Part shown: positions 31-10,258 of the stretch, one piece after another
Layout: each line of letters starts with the position of its first letter
Position numbering within the stretch: position 1 is the first letter of the stretch
Origin: Geobacteraceae bacterium
Lineage (GTDB): Bacteria > Desulfobacterota > Desulfuromonadia > Desulfuromonadales > Geopsychrobacteraceae
Assembly: GCA_027064785.1 (NCBI GenBank)
Contig: JAMOPE010000284.1
Coordinates: forward strand, 1-10,258
Length of the DNA stretch: 10,258 nucleotides
Direction of reading: 5' to 3'
Position numbers and translations under genes: made by a program
Notes under the pieces: model-generated
Databases searched by the model: none
Seen by the model: the letters and a program-made list of their open reading frames with translations, nothing else
What the model was told of the DNA's origin: nothing

Positions 31-603
31 ATGACGTATAAGATTGTCATAGCAGATGATGAGCCGATTACCCGGCTGAATATGTACGAAATACTGGTCG
101 GCGCCGGCTACGATGTTGTCGGTGAGGCAGGGGATGGTTTTGACGCCCTCGATCTCTGTCGGACTCATTCTCCCGATCTGGTTCTCCTCGACATCAAGAT
201 GCCTTTGATTGATGGTTTGAAGGCGGCTCAGCTGATTAAAGAGGAGAAGCTGGCGGGGAGCATTCTTCTGCTGACGGCGTACAGTGGAAAAGAGTTTGTT
301 GAACAGGCCAAAGCTGTCGGGGTTGAAGGGTATCTGGTGAAACCGGTTTCGGAGGAATCGCTGCTGCCGATGGTGGAAGTTGCGATTGCCAAGGGGATTG
401 AGATGGATCAGATGCGTGCCGATATCCGCAAGGTTCAGGATGAACTCGAAGGTCGAAAACTGATCGAAAGGGCAAAGGGATTGCTGATGGCACAGGAGAA
501 ACTGTGCGAAGACGATGCCTACAAAAAAATCCGTAAACTCAGTATGGATAAGGGGCGCCCGATGAAGGATATCGCCAGCGCTATTTTGTTGAATAGTGGC
601 TGA
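31..603 (+). CDS. eutV: EutV, ANTAR-domain response regulator (antiterminator)
   Basis: A 190-residue response regulator of the usual EutV length. Residues 1-120 form a receiver domain with the acidic pair D9/D10, the probable phospho-acceptor D54 in LLDIKMP, T82 in LLTAYS and the conserved lysine K104 in LVKP. Residues about 130-187 are a helical ANTAR RNA-binding domain, including the block ERAKGLLM near 147-153. In this family, phosphorylation lets ANTAR dimers bind paired hexaloop hairpins in nascent mRNA and prevent terminator formation. Such a pair lies at 2085-2121, between eutW and eutA. The ATG has a plausible Shine-Dalgarno (GGGAAGAG, 19-26). The 3' end overlaps eutW by 8 nt, which suggests translational coupling. 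Only 30 nt of upstream sequence are visible, so promoter and leader cannot be judged. Confidence 0.95.
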   Translation: MTYKIVIADDEPITRLNMYEILVGAGYDVVGEAGDGFDALDLCRTHSPDLVLLDIKMPLIDGLKAAQLIKEEKLAGSILLLTAYSGKEFVEQAKAVGVEGYLVKPVSEESLLPMVEVAIAKGIEMDQMRADIRKVQDELEGRKLIERAKGLLMAQEKLCEDDAYKKIRKLSMDKGRPMKDIASAILLNSG

Positions 604-2044
604 GGAATCGAGGCTCGTTACCCTGTGCCGGCAACATGCTGATATTGCTGAAGCTGATATTGAGGTTATCCGCAAAAATGCTGAGTGTCTCGATAGTATC
701 GCGGAGCTGATGGGGGCCGATATCTTTATCGATTGCGGCACCAGAGATCCTGATGTTGCAGTGGTTGTTGCACAAGCCCGGCCGACCAGTGTCAAATCGC
801 TCTATTCCGGTTCAGTGGTCGGTAAGTTTGCCCGTCGCAGTAAAGAGCCTGCGGTTATCAGAACTCTTGAAGTCGGTATGTCGACGATGGATATGAGCGG
901 GGTGACGCAGGAGGATAAAAGTGTCCGTCAGAGCGTTGCCCCGCTTAAAAACAGTGCCGGTGATGTCATTGGAGCGCTGATTGCCGAGAAAGATGTCACC
1001 GAAAGTGTCCGGGCTGAAAAGAAATTATCGGTTCTGACCCAGACCACGGGACAATTGATCGAACGGGGTGCGGTGGTGACATCGGGAGATAACAGTCTGC
1101 CGTATCATGTGACCGACGGCATTTTGATTTTCAGCCGCTCCGGGGTATGTACTTACGCAAATCCGGTTGCTGAAACAATTTATCGGAACCTTGGTTATAT
1201 TGAACCGCTGGAAGGACTCAGTTTTTCTAATATGACCTTTCATGGTGTGAAGTTTGAGGAGATCCTGACTCGTAAACAGGTGGTCCTCACCGATATGGAA
1301 ATCGGCAACTATATTTTCCATATCAAATACACCTATGTGAAGAACAAGAACGAGAATTTCACCGGGGTCGTCATGCTGATCAATGATGTGACCGAGGTGA
1401 AGAATAAAGAAAAAGAACTGGTGTTGAAGACGGTTGCAATCAGCGAGATTCACCACCGGGTCAAGAACAACCTGCAGACGATTGCCAGTCTGCTTAAGCT
1501 GCAATGGCGTCGGGTCGATGATCCGTTGGCCAAGGCAGCGTTTAACGAAAGCATCAGTCAGGTTCTCAGTATTGCCGCCACGCACGAAATATTGGCGGAA
1601 GAGTGTAAAGATGATGTTGACATCATGACGATGCTCGAAAAAATCAAGTCCAACACGATAAAGCACGGACTGTTGGCAAAGAAAGGAATCACTATCAATT
1701 TGAAGGGTGATACCTTCTTCTGTGATTCTGATATGGCGACTTCGATTGCGCTGGTGGTTAACGAGATCACTCAGAATTGTTTGAAATATGCGTTTGTCGG
1801 GCGGGATTCGGGAACGATTGATATTGAGATTTGCAACGGAGCAATGTACTCAAATATCTCCGTCATTGATGATGGGATCGGTTTTAAGTTCGATTCTGAA
1901 GCGACAAACAAGCTTGGTTTGCAAATTGTTAAACGGATTGTCACCGAGAAGCTTAAAGGTAATTTTTCGACAGAATCGAGTCAGACCGGAACTAAGGTTC
2001 TGTTCGATTTTCCACTGAATTCCCGATCTGCTGAAACAATGTAG
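596..2044 (+). CDS. eutW: EutW, soluble sensor histidine kinase
   Basis: A 482-residue kinase with no transmembrane segment, so a cytoplasmic sensor. Residues 8-140 resemble the histidine-kinase N-terminal sensor domain typical of EutW (blocks ADIFID, VVVAQA, EPAVIRT). Residues about 165-270 look like a PAS-type domain. Residues 280-345 are a HisKA_2 dimerisation domain with EIHHRVKNNLQTI, where H287 is the probable phosphorylated histidine. Residues 375-475 are the HATPase domain, with N box NEITQN (389-394), G1 box DDGIG (425-429) and GLQIV near 441. It should phosphorylate EutV in response to ethanolamine; that signal is known for the family, not visible here. The GTG start overlaps eutV and has no clear Shine-Dalgarno. 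It was chosen because the N-terminal domain needs the full length and coupling to eutV explains initiation. Confidence 0.93.
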   Translation: MAEESRLVTLCRQHADIAEADIEVIRKNAECLDSIAELMGADIFIDCGTRDPDVAVVVAQARPTSVKSLYSGSVVGKFARRSKEPAVIRTLEVGMSTMDMSGVTQEDKSVRQSVAPLKNSAGDVIGALIAEKDVTESVRAEKKLSVLTQTTGQLIERGAVVTSGDNSLPYHVTDGILIFSRSGVCTYANPVAETIYRNLGYIEPLEGLSFSNMTFHGVKFEEILTRKQVVLTDMEIGNYIFHIKYTYVKNKNENFTGVVMLINDVTEVKNKEKELVLKTVAISEIHHRVKNNLQTIASLLKLQWRRVDDPLAKAAFNESISQVLSIAATHEILAEECKDDVDIMTMLEKIKSNTIKHGLLAKKGITINLKGDTFFCDSDMATSIALVVNEITQNCLKYAFVGRDSGTIDIEICNGAMYSNISVIDDGIGFKFDSEATNKLGLQIVKRIVTEKLKGNFSTESSQTGTKVLFDFPLNSRSAETM

Positions 2045-2174: not shown

Positions 2175-3605
2175 GTGAGAGAACAGGTTCTCAGCGTCGG
2201 TATCGACATCGGGACAACGACAACTCAGTTGGTCTTCAGCCAGCTGACGCTGGAGAATACTGCTTCCTTGGTGACGGTCCCACGGATTGAGATTATCGAT
2301 AAAGAGGTCATCTATCGCAGTGCAATCCATTTTACCCCGCTACGCTCTCAGAATGAGATTGACGATCACAGTATTCGTTCGTTAATTGAACGGGAGTATC
2401 AGGCAGCAGGGATAACGCCGCAGCAGGTGCAGACGGGGGCTGTGATTATTACCGGTGAGGCTGCTCGCAAACAGAATGCTGAAGCGGTTCTCCGGGCTTT
2501 GAGTGGTTTGGCGGGTGAATTTGTCGTTGCGACGGCCGGGCCAACTCTCGAAGGAATTATTGCCGGAAAGGGTGCCGGGGCTGGTGTGGAGTCGAAAAAA
2601 CGCGGGGCGACCGTAGTCAACCTCGATGTCGGTGGCGGAACGACCAATATTGCTGTCTTCAAAAATGGAGAAGTGATTGATACCGCCTGCCTCGATATCG
2701 GTGGGCGGCTGATTCGCTTTAATAACCAGGGCACGATTGATTATGTTGCCGACAAAGTTGCTTCATTGGCCCGGGCACTGAATCTCAATATCGCAACCGG
2801 GCAACGCTACGACCAGACGGTTGTAGATGCTATTGTCCGGCGGATGGTGGGAATCCTTGAAGAAGTTCTGGGGCTGGTTCCCGCAACATCAGAGTTGGCG
2901 ATGCTGCTGACTGATCACGATCTGCGTCGTGACTATAAAATCGACTACGTCTCTTTCTCCGGTGGGGTTGCTGACTGCCTTTTCAGTTGTGGTAACAGTG
3001 ATCCATTGCAGTATGGTGATATTGGAAAACTGCTGGGAGAAGCCATCACCGGGTCAAAATTGATGCAGAATATTCAGACCCTCACTGCGATTGAAACGAT
3101 CAGGGCAACAGTTGTCGGGGCCGGGTCACATACAACCAATATCAGTGGCAGTACGATTACAGTCGCTCCGGGGGTGTTGCCGTTACAAAATATTCCGGTG
3201 CTGAAACTGTCAACTGAAGATGAAGCTTTGCCGCTCGATGCGTGGGGCGATGCGATTCGTAAAAAGGTGCAGTGGTTCAACCTGGATGGAGAAAAACAGA
3301 ATCTAGCCTTGGCTTTCAAAGGCCCGGAAAATCTCGGTTTTGATGAGGTTCGAGTGTTGGCCGAAGCAATTGTTCAGGGGATGGAAGAAGTATTGTGTAA
3401 AACCTGCCCCCTGATTGTTGTGATTGAGCGTGATCTGGCGAAAGTATTGGGGCAGACGTTACGCAATCGCCTCGGGTTTGCTAAAGATGTGATCTGTATC
3501 GATACGATCAGGGTTGCCAATGGCGACTACATTGATATTGGTCATGAACTTGCTGCAGGAAATGTGGTTCCGGTGATCGTTAAGACACTGGTGTTTAATT
3601 ATTAA
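2175..3605 (+). CDS. eutA: EutA, ethanolamine ammonia-lyase reactivating factor
   Basis: At 476 residues this is close to the usual EutA length. It has the ASKHA-type ATPase fold. Phosphate-binding motif 1 is GIDIGTTTTQLV (from residue 9, D11). Phosphate-binding motif 2 is NLDVGGGTTNIAVF (D151). A third conserved block, FSGGVADCLF, occurs in the second half. EutA uses ATP to eject damaged or cyanocobalamin from inactivated EutBC so that fresh adenosylcobalamin can bind. The GTG start is preceded by AGGGA (2165-2169), 5 nt upstream. It is the first gene after the EutV-controlled terminator, followed 20 nt later by eutB, so it shares the mRNA with its target enzyme. Confidence 0.95.
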   Translation: MREQVLSVGIDIGTTTTQLVFSQLTLENTASLVTVPRIEIIDKEVIYRSAIHFTPLRSQNEIDDHSIRSLIEREYQAAGITPQQVQTGAVIITGEAARKQNAEAVLRALSGLAGEFVVATAGPTLEGIIAGKGAGAGVESKKRGATVVNLDVGGGTTNIAVFKNGEVIDTACLDIGGRLIRFNNQGTIDYVADKVASLARALNLNIATGQRYDQTVVDAIVRRMVGILEEVLGLVPATSELAMLLTDHDLRRDYKIDYVSFSGGVADCLFSCGNSDPLQYGDIGKLLGEAITGSKLMQNIQTLTAIETIRATVVGAGSHTTNISGSTITVAPGVLPLQNIPVLKLSTEDEALPLDAWGDAIRKKVQWFNLDGEKQNLALAFKGPENLGFDEVRVLAEAIVQGMEEVLCKTCPLIVVIERDLAKVLGQTLRNRLGFAKDVICIDTIRVANGDYIDIGHELAAGNVVPVIVKTLVFNY

Positions 3606-3625: not shown

Positions 3626-4990
3626 ATGAGATTGAAAACAGTACTGTCCGGAGTAATGTACGAATTCAAAGACCTCAATGAGGTGATGGCAAAGGCCAAC
3701 GAAGAAAAGTCGGGAGACCGGCTGGCTGGTTTGGCTGCTGCAACTGTGACTGAAATGATCGCCGCCAAGGAAGTTCTGGCGGGGGTCACTCTGGCCGAGA
3801 TCCGCAATAATCCGGCGGTCCCCTACGAACAGGATGAGGTCACCCGACTTGATCAGGATCGGGTCAACGAAAAAATCTACGCTGAGTTGAAAAATCTGAC
3901 GGTTGGTGAGTTTCGTGAGTGGCTGTTGTGTCACGAAACTAGTGGTGACGATATTTCCCGTGCATCTCACGGTTTGACTGCCGAAATGGTCGCTGCCGTG
4001 GCGAAGTTGATGTCGAATCTCGATCTGATCTATGCCGCCCGAAAAATTAAAATAATTGCCCACTGTAATACCACCATTGGTGAAGAGGGGGTGCTGGCGT
4101 TTCGGCTGCAACCGAACCATACCACTGATGATCTTGATGGTATCCGCATCTCGACATTTGAGGGGTTAAGCTACGGTTCCGGCGATGCCCTGATCGGCTT
4201 GAATCCGGTCAATGATACCGTTGAGTCATTATCGAATATTCTCAAAATGTTTCAGGAGATCAAGGAAACCTATCAGATCCCGACCCAGAACTGTGTTCTC
4301 GGCCATGTGACGACCCAGATGGAGGCGGTGCAGAAGGGTGCTCCTGCCGATATGATTTTTCAGAGTATCGCCGGGAGTGAAAAGGGAAACACCGCTTTTG
4401 GTTTGAGTGCTTCGGTTCTGGCTGAAGCGCACGATCTGATGCTGAAGGAAGGGACCGCGACCGGCCCCAATGTTATGTACTTCGAAACGGGGCAGGGGGC
4501 GGAACTTTCATCCGATGCTCACCATGGTGTCGATCAGGTGACAATGGAGGCACGCTGTTACGGCTTTGCCCGCCATTATAATCCGTTTCTGGTCAACACC
4601 GTTGTCGGCTTTATCGGCCCCGAATATCTTTATGACAGCCGTCAGGTGATCCGGGCCGGGTTGGAAGATCTGTTTATGGGGAAATTGTCGGGGATTTCAA
4701 TGGGTGTCGATGCCTGTTACACCAACCATATGAAAGCCGACCAGAACGACATTGAAAACCTTGCAGTTCTCCTGACTTCGGCCGGTTGTAATTATCTGAT
4801 TACTGTCCCGCAGGGGGACGACATCATGCTCAACTACCAGTCTCTCGGTTATCACGAAGCATCAGCATTGCGTGAGCTGCTGGGAAAAAAACCGATTCCT
4901 GCGTTTGCCGCCTGGCTGGAAAAGATGGGAATCTATGAAAATGGTCGCCTGAGTCGGATTGCGGGGGACGCATCAATCTTCTTTGGTTGA
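3626..4990 (+). CDS. eutB: EutB, ethanolamine ammonia-lyase large subunit
   Basis: 454 residues, the standard EutB length. This catalytic subunit forms the TIM-barrel active site that converts ethanolamine to acetaldehyde and ammonia by an adenosylcobalamin radical mechanism. The residues known from Escherichia coli EutB to contact substrate fall at the same numbers here: R160 and Q162 in FRLQPNH, N193 in GLNPVND, E287 in YFETGQG and D362 in MGVDACYTNH. The enzyme therefore looks fully functional. The ATG has AAGGA at 3616-3620. It lies 20 nt after eutA and 41 nt before eutC. Confidence 0.98.
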   Translation: MRLKTVLSGVMYEFKDLNEVMAKANEEKSGDRLAGLAAATVTEMIAAKEVLAGVTLAEIRNNPAVPYEQDEVTRLDQDRVNEKIYAELKNLTVGEFREWLLCHETSGDDISRASHGLTAEMVAAVAKLMSNLDLIYAARKIKIIAHCNTTIGEEGVLAFRLQPNHTTDDLDGIRISTFEGLSYGSGDALIGLNPVNDTVESLSNILKMFQEIKETYQIPTQNCVLGHVTTQMEAVQKGAPADMIFQSIAGSEKGNTAFGLSASVLAEAHDLMLKEGTATGPNVMYFETGQGAELSSDAHHGVDQVTMEARCYGFARHYNPFLVNTVVGFIGPEYLYDSRQVIRAGLEDLFMGKLSGISMGVDACYTNHMKADQNDIENLAVLLTSAGCNYLITVPQGDDIMLNYQSLGYHEASALRELLGKKPIPAFAAWLEKMGIYENGRLSRIAGDASIFFG

Positions 4991-5031: not shown

Positions 5032-5904
5032 GTGGTGGAGAGTGAAATAAATATTAAAAAGATCATTGCTGAAGTTCTGGCAGAAATGGGTCATGACGTA
5101 CCAGCTTCATCAGCACAGGGTGAGGTTGCTGCGGTTGATGATAGCCCATTAGTCGATCTGACGACTGAGGATCTTAAGAAGCAGTTGCTGGTTCCTGAGC
5201 CGGCCAATCGTGATGCTTATCTCAATTACAAAGATGCAACTGTTTCGCGAATCGGGATCTGGAGGAGCGGTTCCCGTTATAAAACCAGTGCTTTCCTCCG
5301 CTTCCGTGCTGATCATGCCATTGCTCAGGACGCGGTGTTCAATGATGTTTCCAGCGATTTTCTCAAAGAGTGGGGGCTTTTCGAGGTAAAAACGAAGTGT
5401 ACTGACAAAGATCAGTTTCTGACCCGCCCCGATCTGGGACGTGAACTGGACGATGAGAATATTGCCCTGCTGAAAAAAAACTGTAATGAACGGGCAAAGG
5501 TTCAGATTTATGTCACCGATGGCTTGAGTTCTACGGCTGTTGAAAAAAATGCCCGCGATACATTTCTGGCGATGGAGCAGGGATTGAAGGGGCATGGTAT
5601 TGAGGTGGGGGCACCATTTTTCCTCCGTTATGGTCGGGTTCCGGCAATGGATGCCATTGCTGATGTTCTCCATCCCGAAGTCACGGTTGCCTTGATTGGT
5701 GAGCGTCCGGGTCTGGCGACAGCAGAGAGCATGAGCTGCTATATGGCCTACAATGCCCACGGTGGAATGCCCGAAGCGAATCGGACGGTGCTGTCCAATA
5801 TTCATCGTGGCGGGACTCCGGCAGTCGAGGCGGGGGCTCATATCGCCGATGTCATCAAAATGATGCTTGAGCAGAAAGCCAGCGGCTTGGAGCTGAAGAA
5901 ATGA
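5032..5904 (+). CDS. eutC: EutC, ethanolamine ammonia-lyase small subunit
   Basis: 290 residues, typical of EutC, which completes the cobalamin-binding cleft with EutB. Conserved blocks include RFRADHAIAQDAV, YVTDGLSSTAVE, GRVPAMD and GERPGLATAESMSCY. Residues 5-20 (starting EINIKKIIAEVL) form a short amphipathic helix, followed by a low-complexity Ala/Ser/Asp linker. In Salmonella this EutC end directs the enzyme into the microcompartment. Two adjacent GTG codons (5032 and 5035) could both initiate; AGAGG at 5025-5029 favours this region, with 5035 giving more normal spacing. The choice changes the product by one residue. Confidence 0.97.
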   Translation: MVESEINIKKIIAEVLAEMGHDVPASSAQGEVAAVDDSPLVDLTTEDLKKQLLVPEPANRDAYLNYKDATVSRIGIWRSGSRYKTSAFLRFRADHAIAQDAVFNDVSSDFLKEWGLFEVKTKCTDKDQFLTRPDLGRELDDENIALLKKNCNERAKVQIYVTDGLSSTAVEKNARDTFLAMEQGLKGHGIEVGAPFFLRYGRVPAMDAIADVLHPEVTVALIGERPGLATAESMSCYMAYNAHGGMPEANRTVLSNIHRGGTPAVEAGAHIADVIKMMLEQKASGLELKK

Positions 5905-5937: not shown

Positions 5938-6591
5938 ATGAAAGGTGATGCTCTACGGGCCGCGGTTCTGAGTGTGCGGATGATTCCGCGAGTCAGTCCG
6001 GCACTGGCGAAGGAGTTCACGTTGACAGCCGAACAGCAGAGCCTTGGGTTGTTGACAGTTGATTGCGATGACGTCGGGTACACTGCCCTTGATGAGGCAA
6101 CGAAAAAGGCTCAGGTCGATGTTGTCTACGCCAAATCATTTTATGCCGGTGCCGCTAACGCCAATACCAAACTGGCGGGAGAGTTTATCGGTATTCTTGC
6201 TGGGCCGACTCCAGCGGAGGTTCGCAGCGGACTTGATGCCGCCATTAGTTTTATTGAAAACGATGGGACGTTTATCAGTGCCAACGAAGATGATTCTATT
6301 GCTTACTACGCCCACTGTGTCTCCCGAACGGGGAATTATCTTTCGGAGCTTGCCGGGATTCCAGAAGGGGCTTCGCTGGCATACCTGATCGCCCCGCCGA
6401 TTGAGGCCGTTGTTGCCCTCGATGCGGCACTGAAAGCCGCTGATGTTGAAATGGTCGCTTTTTATGGTCCACCATCCGAAACCAACTTTGGTGGCGGCCT
6501 GTTGAGTGGCAGCCAGTCGTCGTGTCAGGCGGCCTGTGATGCTTTTGCCGAAGCCGTTCAGGCTGTCGCAGATAACCCGAAGGGGTATTGA
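5938..6591 (+). CDS. eutL: EutL, trimeric BMC shell protein with two tandem domains
   Basis: 217 residues, compared with about 219 in Escherichia coli EutL, and collinear with it. It has two circularly permuted BMC domains (about 1-105 and 106-217). Shared blocks are LGLLTVDCDDVGYTALDEAT, YAKSFYAGAA, CVSRTGNYLS, YLIAPPIEA and PPSETNFGGGLLSGSQSSC. Trimers of this family tile the shell as pseudohexamers and have a large gated central pore thought to admit cofactors or substrate. CGGAGG (5922-5927 region) is a strong Shine-Dalgarno. The stop is 1 nt before the eutK-like start, so translation of the two is probably coupled. Confidence 0.97.
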   Translation: MKGDALRAAVLSVRMIPRVSPALAKEFTLTAEQQSLGLLTVDCDDVGYTALDEATKKAQVDVVYAKSFYAGAANANTKLAGEFIGILAGPTPAEVRSGLDAAISFIENDGTFISANEDDSIAYYAHCVSRTGNYLSELAGIPEGASLAYLIAPPIEAVVALDAALKAADVEMVAFYGPPSETNFGGGLLSGSQSSCQAACDAFAEAVQAVADNPKGY

Positions 6592-6592
6592 T

Positions 6593-7138
6593 ATGAAGGT
6601 AAACGAGTCGCTGGGAAGTTTTGAAACAGTTGGTTATGTCGCTGCTCTGGCAGGGGCTGATGCGGCATTGAAAACAGCGGAAGTCCGATTGCTGGGTTGC
6701 CGCTATGTCGGTTCCGGGCTGGTTTCAGTTCTGCTGGCGGGCGATGTCAGTTCGGTCAAAGTTGCCGTTGAAGCGGGATGTGCTGCCGCACAGCAGGTTG
6801 GTGACCTCAAGTGGCAGACAGTAATTGCCCGGACTGCGGAAGGGCTTGATCTGATTGTCGCCGAGTCGAGAAAGAAGGGTCGGCAAAAGACAGCACCACC
6901 AGAAAAGTCGGTCTCACGCCGCAGTTCAGCGGAGCCACGCAAACGCCGAAGCAATTCACGCCGGAAGAAGATTCCGCAGCTGAGTCAGGAAGAGCTTGAT
7001 GGCATGCGGGTGATTAAATTGCGTGAGGTCGCACGGTTGATGCCGGGACTGACCCTTAATCGGCAACAGATCCGGTCGGCACGTAAAGACGATCTGATCG
7101 CAGCAATCACCAGTTATTACCGGAACGAGAAGGAGTAG
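6593..7138 (+). CDS. EutK-like BMC shell protein with basic linker and Rho-N-like C-terminal domain
   Basis: 181 residues from the ATG at 6593. A longer in-frame start at 6506 exists but would overlap eutL by 86 nt, and AAGGGG (6580-6585) supports 6593. Residues 8-91 form one hexamer-type BMC domain, with YVGSGL (38-43) in the pore region. Residues 92-127 are a strongly basic linker rich in Arg, Lys and Ser. Residues 133-177 contain ELDGMRVIKLREVARLM and KDDLIAAITSYY, a pattern resembling the Rho N-terminal/SAP-like fold, which often binds nucleic acid. Escherichia coli EutK also has a C-terminal nucleic-acid-binding-type domain, but that one is a winged-helix type and looks different from this tail. 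Position between eutL and eutE is the usual eutK position. The BMC domain is certain; the tail assignment is a pattern judgement, and any nucleic-acid role is inference. Confidence 0.85.
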   Translation: MKVNESLGSFETVGYVAALAGADAALKTAEVRLLGCRYVGSGLVSVLLAGDVSSVKVAVEAGCAAAQQVGDLKWQTVIARTAEGLDLIVAESRKKGRQKTAPPEKSVSRRSSAEPRKRRSNSRRKKIPQLSQEELDGMRVIKLREVARLMPGLTLNRQQIRSARKDDLIAAITSYYRNEKE

Positions 7139-7143
7139 ATAAT

Positions 7144-8586
7144 ATGGCGGATCGTGATTTAGCCTCGATTCAGGAAGCGAGAGATCTGGTCAGCAGAGCG
7201 CGGGCGGCACAACAGGAGTTTGCCCGTTTGAATCAGCAGCAGGTCGATCAGGCCGTTCAGGCGATTTCAAAAGTGATGACGGCGATGGCAAAGGATCTGG
7301 CGACGATGGCGGTTGAAGAAACCGGTTTTGGGAATGCCGAGGATAAAACCAAAAAGAACCTTCTGGCTTCAGATAAGCTGTTCAAGCGGATTCAACCGCT
7401 GAAAACCATCGGGGTGATTGATGAGGGGCGGGAGAGTAAAATCACCAAGGTGGCGGTTCCTGCCGGAATTATTGCGGCGTTGATCCCATCGACCAATCCG
7501 ACCTCAACAACAATTTATAAAACGTTGATTTCGCTCAAGGCAGGCAACGGTGTGGTGTTCAGCCCTCATCCCAGTGCCTTGCGGTGTATCGGCCGGACAG
7601 TTGAAATTATCCGTCAGGTTCTCAAGGAACTGAATATTCCCGCAGATCTGATAAGCATGATTGAGATCCCGACCCTTGAGGGGACTGCCGAGCTGATGAA
7701 ACAGGCCGATCTGATTCTGGCAACGGGCGGCCCGGCGATGGTCAAGGCGGCATACAGTTCAGGAACTCCCGCTCTGGGTGTCGGCCCGGGTAACGTCCCG
7801 GTCTTTATCGAGAAGAGTGCCGATATTGACGCGGCGGTTAAGCGGGTTATGACAGGGAAAACGTTTGATTACGGAACTGTCTGCTCTTCGGAGCAGGCCA
7901 TCGTCACCGAAGATGCAATTGTCGAACAGGTCAAGCGGGCGTTTGTCTCACAGGGAGGTTATTTCCTCGAAGGTGAGGCGGCAGAGAAGGTCAAAGTCAT
8001 CATGAAGAGCCCGAAAGGGGGGATGAATGCAGCGATTGTCGGTAAGCCTGCCAGTGAGCTGGCAAAGATGGCGGGGATCGAGGTTCCGGCAGGAACGCGA
8101 CTGTTGCTGTATGAAGAAAAAGGTGTTGGCCCCGGTTATCCTTTTTCGTACGAAAAATTAACAGGACTGATGGGCTTTTACAGTGTCAAGGACTGGCATG
8201 CCGCCGCCGATTTGTGTTTACGGCTGTTGAAAAATGGAGGACTTGGTCATTCTCTGTCGCTCCATTCCAATAACGAAGAGATTATCCGCCATTTCGGTTT
8301 GAACATGCCGGTATCGCGGCTGCTGGTGAATACGCCATCCTCTCTGGGTGCCGTTGGCAGTACGACAAATCTTGATCCCTCCCTGACGCTGGGCTGTGGC
8401 CCGGTTGGTGGCAGTTCGACCTCTGATAATGTCGGGACACAGCATCTGTTTAATATCCGTTCTATCGCCTACGGGCTTGATCAGGCGGTTCCACAAAAAA
8501 CAACAACCAGCATTGATATCGATAAGATCAGTGCTTTGGTTGTCGAACAATTGAAGAAAATGAATTATGTTCCAGCGGAAGTTTGA
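7144..8586 (+). CDS. eutE: EutE, CoA-acylating acetaldehyde dehydrogenase
   Basis: 480 residues of the aldehyde dehydrogenase superfamily. It oxidises acetaldehyde to acetyl-CoA with NAD+ inside the compartment. The catalytic cysteine is C247 in FDYGTVCSSEQAI. Nucleotide-binding and structural blocks include IIAALIPSTNPTST (109-122), ILATGGPAMVKAAY (191-204) and LGVGPGNVPVF (211-221). The N-terminus begins almost directly with the catalytic fold (DLASIQEARDLVSRAR). It lacks the separate N-terminal helix of Escherichia coli EutE. A Thr/Gln-rich linker (449-455) is instead followed by a C-terminal amphipathic helix at 456-475 (SIDIDKISALVVEQLKKMNY) that looks like an encapsulation peptide. AAGGAG (7130-7135) precedes the ATG, inside the end of the eutK-like gene. 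Confidence 0.96.
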   Translation: MADRDLASIQEARDLVSRARAAQQEFARLNQQQVDQAVQAISKVMTAMAKDLATMAVEETGFGNAEDKTKKNLLASDKLFKRIQPLKTIGVIDEGRESKITKVAVPAGIIAALIPSTNPTSTTIYKTLISLKAGNGVVFSPHPSALRCIGRTVEIIRQVLKELNIPADLISMIEIPTLEGTAELMKQADLILATGGPAMVKAAYSSGTPALGVGPGNVPVFIEKSADIDAAVKRVMTGKTFDYGTVCSSEQAIVTEDAIVEQVKRAFVSQGGYFLEGEAAEKVKVIMKSPKGGMNAAIVGKPASELAKMAGIEVPAGTRLLLYEEKGVGPGYPFSYEKLTGLMGFYSVKDWHAAADLCLRLLKNGGLGHSLSLHSNNEEIIRHFGLNMPVSRLLVNTPSSLGAVGSTTNLDPSLTLGCGPVGGSSTSDNVGTQHLFNIRSIAYGLDQAVPQKTTTSIDIDKISALVVEQLKKMNYVPAEV

Positions 8587-8647
8587 TAATGACTGAAAAA
8601 GCAGTTTTAAACTCACACACGATCCAATAACGGAAAAGGAGAAAACA

Positions 8648-8932
8648 ATGGCAACATCAAGTGCAATCGGAATGGTAGAGACCCGCGGTTTTGTCGCAGC
8701 CCTCGAAGCTGCTGATGCAATGGTCAAGGCAGCGAACGTCACTCTGGTCGGTAAGACTCAGGTCGGTAGCGGTCTGGTGGCAATCCTGGTGCGTGGCGAT
8801 GTCGGTGCCGTCAAAGCGGCAACGGATGCTGGCGCGGCTGCTGCTGCCAAAGTTGGTGAAGTGGTCAGCGTCCACGTGATTCCACGCCCTCATGACGAAG
8901 TTGAAATTATTCTGCCGAAGATAAAAGAGTAA
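8648..8932 (+). CDS. eutM: EutM-type hexameric BMC shell protein, copy 1
   Basis: 94 residues, a canonical single BMC domain. It contains [20 protein letters not shown], the pore motif QVGSGL (38-43), [19 protein letters not shown] and the typical C-terminal [12 protein letters not shown]. Hexamers of this family form most of the flat shell, and their central pores pass small metabolites. AGGAG (8637-8641) precedes the ATG. The 61-nt gap after eutE shows only a weak ACTG/CAGT hairpin near 8591 and no terminator. It is 90% identical to the protein from copy 2 (85 of 94 residues by direct comparison). Confidence 0.97.
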
Positions 8933-9132: not shown

Positions 9133-9152
9133 GGTTTGAAAAAGGAGAAACA

Positions 9153-9437
9153 ATGGCGGTTTTAAGTGCATTGGGAATGGTGGAAACCCGTGGTTTTGTT
9201 GCAGCTCTCGAAGCAGCAGACGCAATGGTCAAGGCAGCAAATGTCACTCTTGTCGGTAAGACTCAGGTCGGTACCGGTTTGGTAGCAATTCTGGTGCGTG
9301 GCGATGTCGGTGCGGTCAAAGCAGCGACCGATGCCGGTGCGGCAGCGGCTGCCAAAGTTGGTGAAGTGGTCAGTGTCCATGTGATTCCACGGCCTCATGA
9401 TGAAGTTGAACTGATTCTCCCCAGTCAGGGAAAATAA
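9153..9437 (+). CDS. eutM: EutM-type hexameric BMC shell protein, copy 2
   Basis: 94 residues, the same canonical BMC domain as copy 1. The nine differences fall at residues 3, 4, 7, 41 and 87 and in the last four residues (91-94). Residue 41 lies in the pore loop: QVGTGL here, QVGSGL in copy 1. The DNA differs at many silent third positions while the protein core is unchanged, so the duplication is not very recent and both copies appear to be under purifying selection. AAGGAG (9142-9147) precedes the ATG. The stop codon directly abuts the start of the next gene, so translation of the two is probably coupled. Confidence 0.97.
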
Positions 9438-10258
9438 ATGATCGAAAAAGTCATCACGGAAGCTTTATTGAGGACACAATTTCTCAAAGGGCTTCCCGAG
9501 ACTTTTACTCTGACTGAGAGTCAGCTGCTGACTCCGGCGGCAGCACAGTTTCTCAACGACCGCAAGATTTCGGTTGTTAAGGTAAAAGAGACGACCGGGG
9601 CAGGTTATATCGCGGTTGAGGATGGTCAAAACTATCCGGTGAAGCCGGAGCATATGACCCATCTGATCGGTCGTCAACTGGTGCCGAAGGATCATCCGCG
9701 GATTATTTTCCGTGGTCTGATTGACAACTTTCAGGCTGAGGTGCTGTTACAACAGCAGTATGAGGAACAACGGGGCAATGGTTCTCTGAGCAAACAGCTG
9801 GAAGATCTGTTTCGCCGGGCGCAGGAGATTCTGAAGGCCGAAGTGACCGGTAAGGAACTTGAGCCATGCAACTTTCTCGGTTGGAGTGAAGCTGAGATCA
9901 GAGAACGTTCCCATACGCCTCAGAAGTATTTTGGTATCGGGCACCTTGATCTCAGTGCCGAACTGAGCCCGGAAGTTTTGTCGCTCAACCGCTTACGGAC
10001 GTTGATTCGACGGGTTGAATTGGCAGCGGTGACAGCGTTTACTCACGGTGAAACGGTTGAACAGCCAGATATCCTGCAGGCACTGAACCGCTTGAGCAGT
10101 GTGATTTATGTGATGATGCTGGTCGCTGACGGGGCGAAAGGGCAACGCGGAGAGAGTATGGATAACCGACTGGTTGACGAGGTCGTTGCTAAAGTGATGA
10201 CCCGTTTTGAAGCGACAGATCGGCAGATTCCGGTGGAGCTGTCGGCCCGCCACGTCCA
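9438..10258 (+). CDS. eutT: EutT-like cobalamin adenosyltransferase fused in frame to a PduL-like phosphotransacylase N-terminus (partial, runs off the window)
   Basis: Reading from the ATG at 9438 gives 273 codons with no stop before the window edge. Residues 1-240 align by eye with EutT, the ATP:cob(I)alamin adenosyltransferase that makes adenosylcobalamin for EutBC. Shared blocks are ITEALLR (6-12), LVPKDHPRIIFRG, GWSEAEIRERSH, SLNRLRT and QPDILQALNRLSSVIYVMM (209-227). The cysteine-rich metal motif of Salmonella EutT is missing; the only cysteine is C144. Residues 241-273 begin with an amphipathic helix (MDNRLVDEVVAKVMTRF) and reach IPVELSARHV, which matches the start of PduL. PduL transfers acyl groups from CoA to phosphate, and its RHVH motif holds zinc-binding histidines. 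The last two bases (CA) fit the next His. The EutT part is confident. The fusion is directly readable, but the rest of PduL is outside the window. Confidence 0.85.
   Translation, partial: MIEKVITEALLRTQFLKGLPETFTLTESQLLTPAAAQFLNDRKISVVKVKETTGAGYIAVEDGQNYPVKPEHMTHLIGRQLVPKDHPRIIFRGLIDNFQAEVLLQQQYEEQRGNGSLSKQLEDLFRRAQEILKAEVTGKELEPCNFLGWSEAEIRERSHTPQKYFGIGHLDLSAELSPEVLSLNRLRTLIRRVELAAVTAFTHGETVEQPDILQALNRLSSVIYVMMLVADGAKGQRGESMDNRLVDEVVAKVMTRFEATDRQIPVELSARHV
10149..10160 (+). promoter_or_regulatory. Possible internal Shine-Dalgarno and ATG for a separate PduL product
   Basis: GGAGAG (10149-10154) lies 3 nt before an in-frame ATG (10158-10160) at the exact point where PduL-type sequence begins. 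In a non-fused arrangement this would be the pduL start. It could therefore give a free PduL in addition to the fusion. The spacing is short, so initiation strength is uncertain. Confidence 0.4.

What the first reader, a model, noticed from the sequence alone, without database searches (positions are those of the whole stretch)
9438..10258. In-frame fusion of EutT adenosyltransferase to a PduL-type phosphotransacylase
The reading frame from 9438 passes through the conserved end of EutT (QPDILQALNRLSSVIYVMM) and a 13-residue linker into a PduL-like start (amphipathic helix, then IPVELSARHV) with no stop. I know these as separate enzymes in other eut/pdu loci. A fusion would join cofactor synthesis to CoA recycling, and the PduL encapsulation helix would become an internal element that could carry EutT into the compartment. 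The remaining risk is a lost stop codon from a sequencing error or a strain-specific mutation.
Basis: partly seen in the sequence, partly recalled or inferred. Interest (0 to 1): 0.85.

Follow-up and report, generated by a model that had tools for sequence, protein, structure and literature searches.

The report
EutT and PduL fused into one
In an ethanolamine-degrading compartment operon of an environmental bacterium, two enzymes usually made separately, one finishing the vitamin B12 cofactor and one recycling coenzyme A, are encoded as one chain; the same join is found in many related proteins and appears to have arisen more than once.

Summary
ORF 9438-10258 is open to the contig end and runs from EutT through a 13-residue linker into the start of PduL. 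The contig breaks there, so the PduL body is missing from this assembly. A 97%-identical database protein (447 aa) and 65 further clusters carry both domains, so this is not a lost stop. The named isolate is Desulfuromusa kysingii.

The fusion is neither unique nor single-origin. In 58 of 80 fetched loci the genes are separate, 57 of them eutT then pduL side by side; in 11 they are fused. Sporomusa and Desulfosporosinus proteins are fused too. Trees force at least two changes. No paper passage I read mentions it.

New here: the Desulfuromusa-type linker keeps pduL's old start signal (GGAG, 5 nt, ATG at 10158) and its encapsulation-type helix. Five of seven linker ATGs have a Shine-Dalgarno tetramer, against 1 of 85 other internal ATGs; the Gly codon is GGA in 7 of 7. 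I infer one gene giving a long EutT-helix-PduL and probably also free PduL. Expression, activity and location are untested.

The parts
9438..10258 (+). eutT::pduL fusion ORF, open at the contig end
   Evidence: 61 of 66 two-domain relatives are 438-465 aa
9438..10118 (+). EutT cobalamin adenosyltransferase part
10119..10157 (+). 13-residue variable linker
   Evidence: pLDDT under 50 at 234-260 of P0001
10149..10152 (+). Shine-Dalgarno-like GGAG inside the ORF, 5 nt before the internal ATG
10158..10160 (+). Internal in-frame ATG, at the place of the start codon of unfused pduL
   Evidence: the free PduL of L096 begins MDTQIVKKIIEDVVAEL
10158..10208 (+). Amphipathic encapsulation-type helix MDNRLVDEVVAKVMTRF, now internal
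   Evidence: similar N-termini of unfused PduL; helix 246-257 in the model of P0001
10227..10258 (+). First residues of the PduL domain (IPVELSARHV)
   Evidence: in P0001 PTAC scores 244.6 bits, cut-off 25, from residue 265
31..603 (+). eutV response regulator (receiver + ANTAR)
596..2044 (+). eutW sensor histidine kinase
2175..3605 (+). eutA ammonia-lyase reactivase
3626..4990 (+). eutB ammonia-lyase large subunit
5032..5904 (+). eutC ammonia-lyase small subunit, with an N-terminal helix-like stretch of encapsulation type
   Evidence: moment
5938..6591 (+). eutL shell trimer
6506..7138 (+). BMC-domain shell protein with a C-terminal extension (EutK-like); the true start is probably 6593
7144..8586 (+). 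eutE acetaldehyde dehydrogenase, with a C-terminal helix-like stretch of encapsulation type
   Evidence: moment
8648..8932 (+). eutM shell hexamer, copy 1 (not itself scanned with Pfam)
   Evidence: ORF; 86% DNA repeat of copy 2
9153..9437 (+). eutM shell hexamer, copy 2

Best explanation
The ORF encodes a bifunctional protein of a type-2 ethanolamine (EUT2-like) microcompartment. EutT adenylates cob(I)alamin for ethanolamine ammonia-lyase; PduL turns the acetyl-CoA made by EutE into acetyl-phosphate and frees CoA. The two genes were neighbours; loss of the boundary between them joined them. In the Desulfuromusa lineage the join kept pduL's encapsulation-type helix, which probably anchors the whole chain to shell tiles, and kept pduL's ribosome site, so that the gene probably makes both the long chain and free helix-PduL, which would give more PTAC than EutT. 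Shown: the fusion, its conservation, kept catalytic positions, the operon, the retained site. Inferred: activity of both halves, encapsulation, the second product, and that acetyl-phosphate feeds ATP to EutT through EutQ.
Against: The eight Desulfuromusa-type DNA sequences share ancestry, so the Fisher value overstates; the codon test alone is 1 of 21, and 6 of 129 other invariant columns also keep one codon in all rows. The deeper fusions L016 and L017 lack ATG and SD, and 11 of 65 linkers lack the Met. In the window another ATG (10197) scores equally in the duplex measure. Only 3 of 202 other fusions show the helix pattern, so fusion does not need it. G009 and G010 have EutB without any match to the fusion model. 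No expression, activity or localisation data.
Confidence: 0.75

Rival explanations
1. A single bifunctional polypeptide only: the internal ATG and GGAG are relics of the former pduL start, or Gly-Glu-x-Met-Asp is kept for the protein's sake (helix cap), and no free PduL is made.
For: Met missing in 11 of 65 linkers and the site absent in L016 and L017; most short-linker fusions have no room for an internal start and still exist.
Against: Linker columns 6-10, just before the site, are variable (1.2-1.7 bits) while Gly (3.4) and Met (2.9) are kept, and the Gly codon is GGA in 7 of 7 although GGA is 6-40% of Gly codons in these ORFs.
Confidence: 0.38
2. A fusion precursor that is cut in the linker to give separate EutT and PduL.
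For: The linker is low-confidence, probably flexible, in the model (pLDDT under 50 at 234-260).
Against: I saw no conserved cleavage-like motif apart from the start-site residues; the rest of the linker is variable. No protease search was made.
Confidence: 0.06
3. Lost stop codon by sequencing error or a strain-specific mutation.
For: Single draft-genome contig ending within the ORF.
Against: 66 clusters with the same join, down to 47% identity, and the D. kysingii isolate genome.
Confidence: 0.01
4. One half is a catalytically dead structural domain.
For: Such degenerate fusions are known in general (recalled).
Against: The catalytic positions checked are kept in both halves; no separate EutT or PduL matched the fusion model in the 14 genus genomes.
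Confidence: 0.04

Closest known systems
EutT of EUT loci (PF01923; NF011595)
   Same: Fold class, conserved end DILQALNRLSS.YVMM, place in the operon beside eutM
   Different: Fused at its C-terminus. No CCxxC in the first 140 residues of any of 322 related proteins, fused or not; that Salmonella EutT has such a metal motif is recalled
PduL / EutD of EUT2 loci (PF06130; NF040837, NF011652; structure 5cuo)
   Different: The helix is internal, preceded by EutT
Two-domain EutT-PduL proteins of Sporomusa, Desulfosporosinus and Clostridia (database names such as 'phosphate propanoyltransferase')
   Same: Same two domains in the same order; in L042 the same place in the operon
   Different: Fall elsewhere on the trees (long branches); 172 of 202 have linkers of 20 residues or fewer and 3 of 202 show the helix pattern
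CcmM of beta-carboxysomes (long and short forms)
   Same: A compartment protein with long and short N-terminal forms that have different roles (PMC11005335, passages seen)
   Different: Unrelated protein; two products are not shown here

Membership tests
EutT / cobalamin adenosyltransferase (PF01923) | Profile match over the curated cut-off | tested here: met
   61 bits against 24
EutT / cobalamin adenosyltransferase (PF01923) | NCBIfam EutT equivalog NF011595 cut-off | tested here: not met
   116 of 226 bits; the unfused P0067 also falls short at 136.9, so I take this as a divergent EutT branch
EutT / cobalamin adenosyltransferase (PF01923) | Adenosyltransferase activity | not testable with these tools
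   Only conserved residues seen
PduL phosphotransacylase (PF06130) | PTAC domain in the window's own ORF | tested here: inconclusive
   Only about 10 residues before the contig end; no PTAC hit in the window ORF
PduL phosphotransacylase (PF06130) | PTAC domain in the 97% relative P0001 | tested here: met
   244.6 bits against 25; NF011652 249.8 against 209; NF040837 267.1, under its 315
PduL phosphotransacylase (PF06130) | Metal-binding His and Glu residues | tested here: met
   H272, H274, E331, H379, H381, H426 kept, aligned with 5cuo; their metal role is recalled
Encapsulation peptide | Short amphipathic helix joined by a flexible linker | tested here: met
   Helix 246-257 in a low-confidence stretch; moment 0.56 beside EutC N-term 0.38, EutE C-term 0.52 and unfused PduL 0.34-0.54; not extreme within P0001, so weak by itself
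Encapsulation peptide | Terminal position | tested here: not met
   Internal in the long product; terminal only if the internal ATG is used
Encapsulation peptide | Directs cargo into a shell | not testable with these tools
   No experiment
EUT2-type locus | Two-component regulator and PduL-type PTAC | tested here: met
   EutV and EutW in the window; PduL by relatives; criteria from passages of PMC4207490

The most novel reading that the evidence does not exclude
A dual-product gene: a fused eutT::pduL that has kept a working internal ribosome site, so that one reading frame makes a scarce EutT-helix-PduL and an abundant free helix-PduL. The long form, whose halves belong to oligomeric families, would cross-link enzymes and shell and help to nucleate the compartment, in the manner of CcmM.
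Probability: 0.45. Interest if true: 0.65.

Novelty: new variant of a known kind. Interest (0 to 1): 0.5.

Why it matters
It suggests that cofactor maturation and CoA recycling have been tied into one chain more than once in ethanolamine compartments, which argues that both belong in the same place; in the one localisation section I read (PMC12487888, section 6) EutT was not among the proteins imaged. The retained helix and start site allow a direct test of whether an internal encapsulation peptide works and whether a metabolosome uses two products of one gene to set enzyme ratios.

Tried and rejected
Rejected: lost stop or assembly artefact. Rejected: fusion unique to this lineage. Looked for the missing PduL half elsewhere in the genome: none found. 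Wider samples: of 136 genomes of the order 9 hold a match spanning the fusion (the window's own cut by the contig end); of 395 drawn from the phylum only the window's own does. Rfam search of window, L014 and L042: no family at the gathering threshold. A palindrome scan of the window was at chance level (3 found, 2.33 expected). Hydrophobic moment: the linker helix is not among the 12 highest windows printed for P0001, so the moment alone proves nothing. Co-occurrence in the genus is imperfect: EutB in 8 of 14 genomes, the fusion in 7 of 14; G009 and G010 have EutB without any match to the fusion model, and G005 has two fusions without EutB; these three drafts are 78-84% complete. Rows left out of counts: the SD count used 10 of 12 fused ORFs (L042 and L085 left out) and ATGs from codon 21 on; the conservation table used the 60 linkers of 36 residues (46 distinct) out of 65 found in 66 proteins; the trees were thinned from 392 to 266 and from 349 to 218 rows, and because long branches meet there I claim only at least two changes, where L042 and L085 are also flagged as long. 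The searches started from fusions, were length-limited and listed only the best 120 each, so 268 of 322 is not a frequency. A script count gave Met in 53 of 65 linkers; P0024, one residue longer, was misread by it, so the count is 54.

Full report
What is there. The window is one whole contig, G000:C284, of a draft genome whose genus-mates are Desulfuromusa, as shown by matching contigs with named records. It holds an ethanolamine operon on the + strand: eutV, eutW, eutA, eutB, eutC, eutL, a EutK-like shell protein, eutE, two eutM copies, and at 9438 an ORF that stays open to the contig end. That ORF is EutT followed by a 13-residue linker, an amphipathic helix and the first ten residues of PduL.

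Is the join real. The assembly cannot say what follows 10258, and no PTAC domain was found elsewhere in this genome. Relatives can. Of 905 proteins found the best 120 are listed; 66 of those 120 (P0001-P0066) carry both PF01923 and PF06130, the nearest at 97% identity; 61 of the 66 are 438-465 aa, five are shorter. D. kysingii DSM 7343 has it as one 455-residue ORF (L014). Among 14 genomes of the genus 7 hold it, and none of the 14 shows a separate EutT or PduL to the fusion model.

How it arose. I fetched 80 named loci (best 80 of 136). Eleven hold one ORF with both domains, 58 hold both in separate frames, and 11 hold PduL alone. In 57 of the 58 the order is eutT then pduL on one strand with 61-236 nt between the domains; L075 has the reverse order, 2 kb apart. 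In Desulfobacterium L018 and Clostridioides L022, for example, eutT's stop is followed by a purine-rich site and an ATG that opens a helix, MDKTIIEKIVALVMAEL or MESLLNEIVEEVINR. The fused linker reads MDNRLVDEVVAKVMTRF at the same place. In quick maximum-likelihood trees of the EutT and PduL parts, the Desulfuromusa, L016 and L017 fusions form one group (support 98 and 93) inside the separate-gene Thermodesulfobacteriota rows, while L042 (Sporomusaceae) and L085 (Clostridiales) fall elsewhere on long branches; three changes are needed and starred branches force two. L096, from the same order, is the closest unfused PduL: eutE-eutM-eutM-pduL, with about 30 residues that look like eutT's beginning and then a stop in between. 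It is either a lineage that lost EutT before fusion or one that split after it.

A widespread architecture. Searches with L085 and L042 listed 120 two-domain proteins each. Over the three searches 268 of 322 distinct proteins have both domains; because two queries were themselves fusions and the searches are length-limited, this is not a frequency. Named holders include Sporomusa acidovorans, S. malonica, Desulfosporosinus orientis and D. youngiae. Of the 202 found with these two queries, 172 have linkers of 20 residues or fewer. A hydrophobic pattern for the helix is met by 3 of the 202 (P0137, P0192, P0205, each with a Met before the helix) and by 46 of 65 Desulfuromusa-type linkers. L042 sits at the same place in an operon with eutA, eutB, eutC, an aldehyde dehydrogenase, shell genes and eutN.

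The retained start signal. In all eight Desulfuromusa-type sequences for which I have DNA (window, L009-L015) a start-type codon stands at the old pduL start: ATG in seven, GTG in L009. GGAG lies 5 nt before it in six (window, L009, L010, L011, L014, L015); L012 and L013 have variants. Over ten fused ORFs (L042 and L085 left out) there are 92 in-frame ATGs past codon 20; six have GGAG, AGGA or GAGG 5-13 nt upstream, and five of those six are the linker ATG (Fisher 2.5e-6, overstated because the sequences are related). By duplex energy the linker codon ranks 3, 6, 3, 3, 1, 2, 1 and 2 among in-frame ATG, GTG and TTG codons of window and L009-L015, tied in places. Of 21 Gly columns kept in at least seven rows, only the linker's uses GGA in all (7 of 7); as a background, 6 of 129 invariant columns of common residues keep one codon in all rows. 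Linker columns 6-10 before it are variable. Against this, the deeper fusions L016 and L017 lack it, 11 of 65 linkers lack Met, and a second ATG at 10197 scores equally in the window.

How it most likely works. EutT and PduL serve the same pathway: PduL regenerates the CoA that EutE uses, EutT makes the cofactor that EutBC uses (established knowledge). The D. kysingii operon also encodes EutP and EutQ; in Salmonella EutQ was found in the compartment and was proposed to make ATP from acetyl-phosphate (PMC12487888, section 6 read). ATP for EutT could thus come from PduL's product; this is inference. In the Pdu system PduL is a dimer whose N-terminal peptide binds between shell tiles (PMC11157265, passages seen), so an internal helix on a two-enzyme chain could anchor and cross-link. 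The retained start suggests that free PduL is made too.

Literature. Searches that bear on the fusion gave no paper whose passages, as far as I read them, describe it. Six papers in the library hold EutT, PduL and microcompartment; I saw passages of all six and of the catalogue PMC8217296, and none mentions a EutT-PduL protein fusion. For PMC4207490 12 of 20 places were shown; supplements were not open to me, and most subscription journals are not in the library. Database names already reveal it ('propanediol utilization protein/ethanolamine utilization cobalamin adenosyltransferase'). So: known to databases, not described in what I could read, a new variant of known enzymes.

Noticed in passing
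8633-8916 and 9138-9421: The two eutM genes lie in an 86% identical DNA repeat of 284 nt, a tandem duplication of the shell gene just before the fusion.
   Followed up: partly
L014:17153-20571: In D. kysingii phosphonate-metabolism genes (phnH, phnI, a phnK-like gene) lie downstream of the ethanolamine operon, which might link phosphonate and ethanolamine use.
   Followed up: no
L096:1273-1569: About 30 residues like the start of EutT, then a stop, between eutM and a free pduL in a genome of the same order: EutT lost while PduL was kept.
   Followed up: partly
G005:C67 and G005:C102: One draft genome of the genus carries two different eutT::pduL fusions.
   Followed up: no
L014:11317-11979 and 12298-12612: Two ORFs weakly similar to the uncharacterised family TIGR02536 (67.2 and 20.3 bits, cut-off 152.6) follow the fusion in D. 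kysingii.
   Followed up: no
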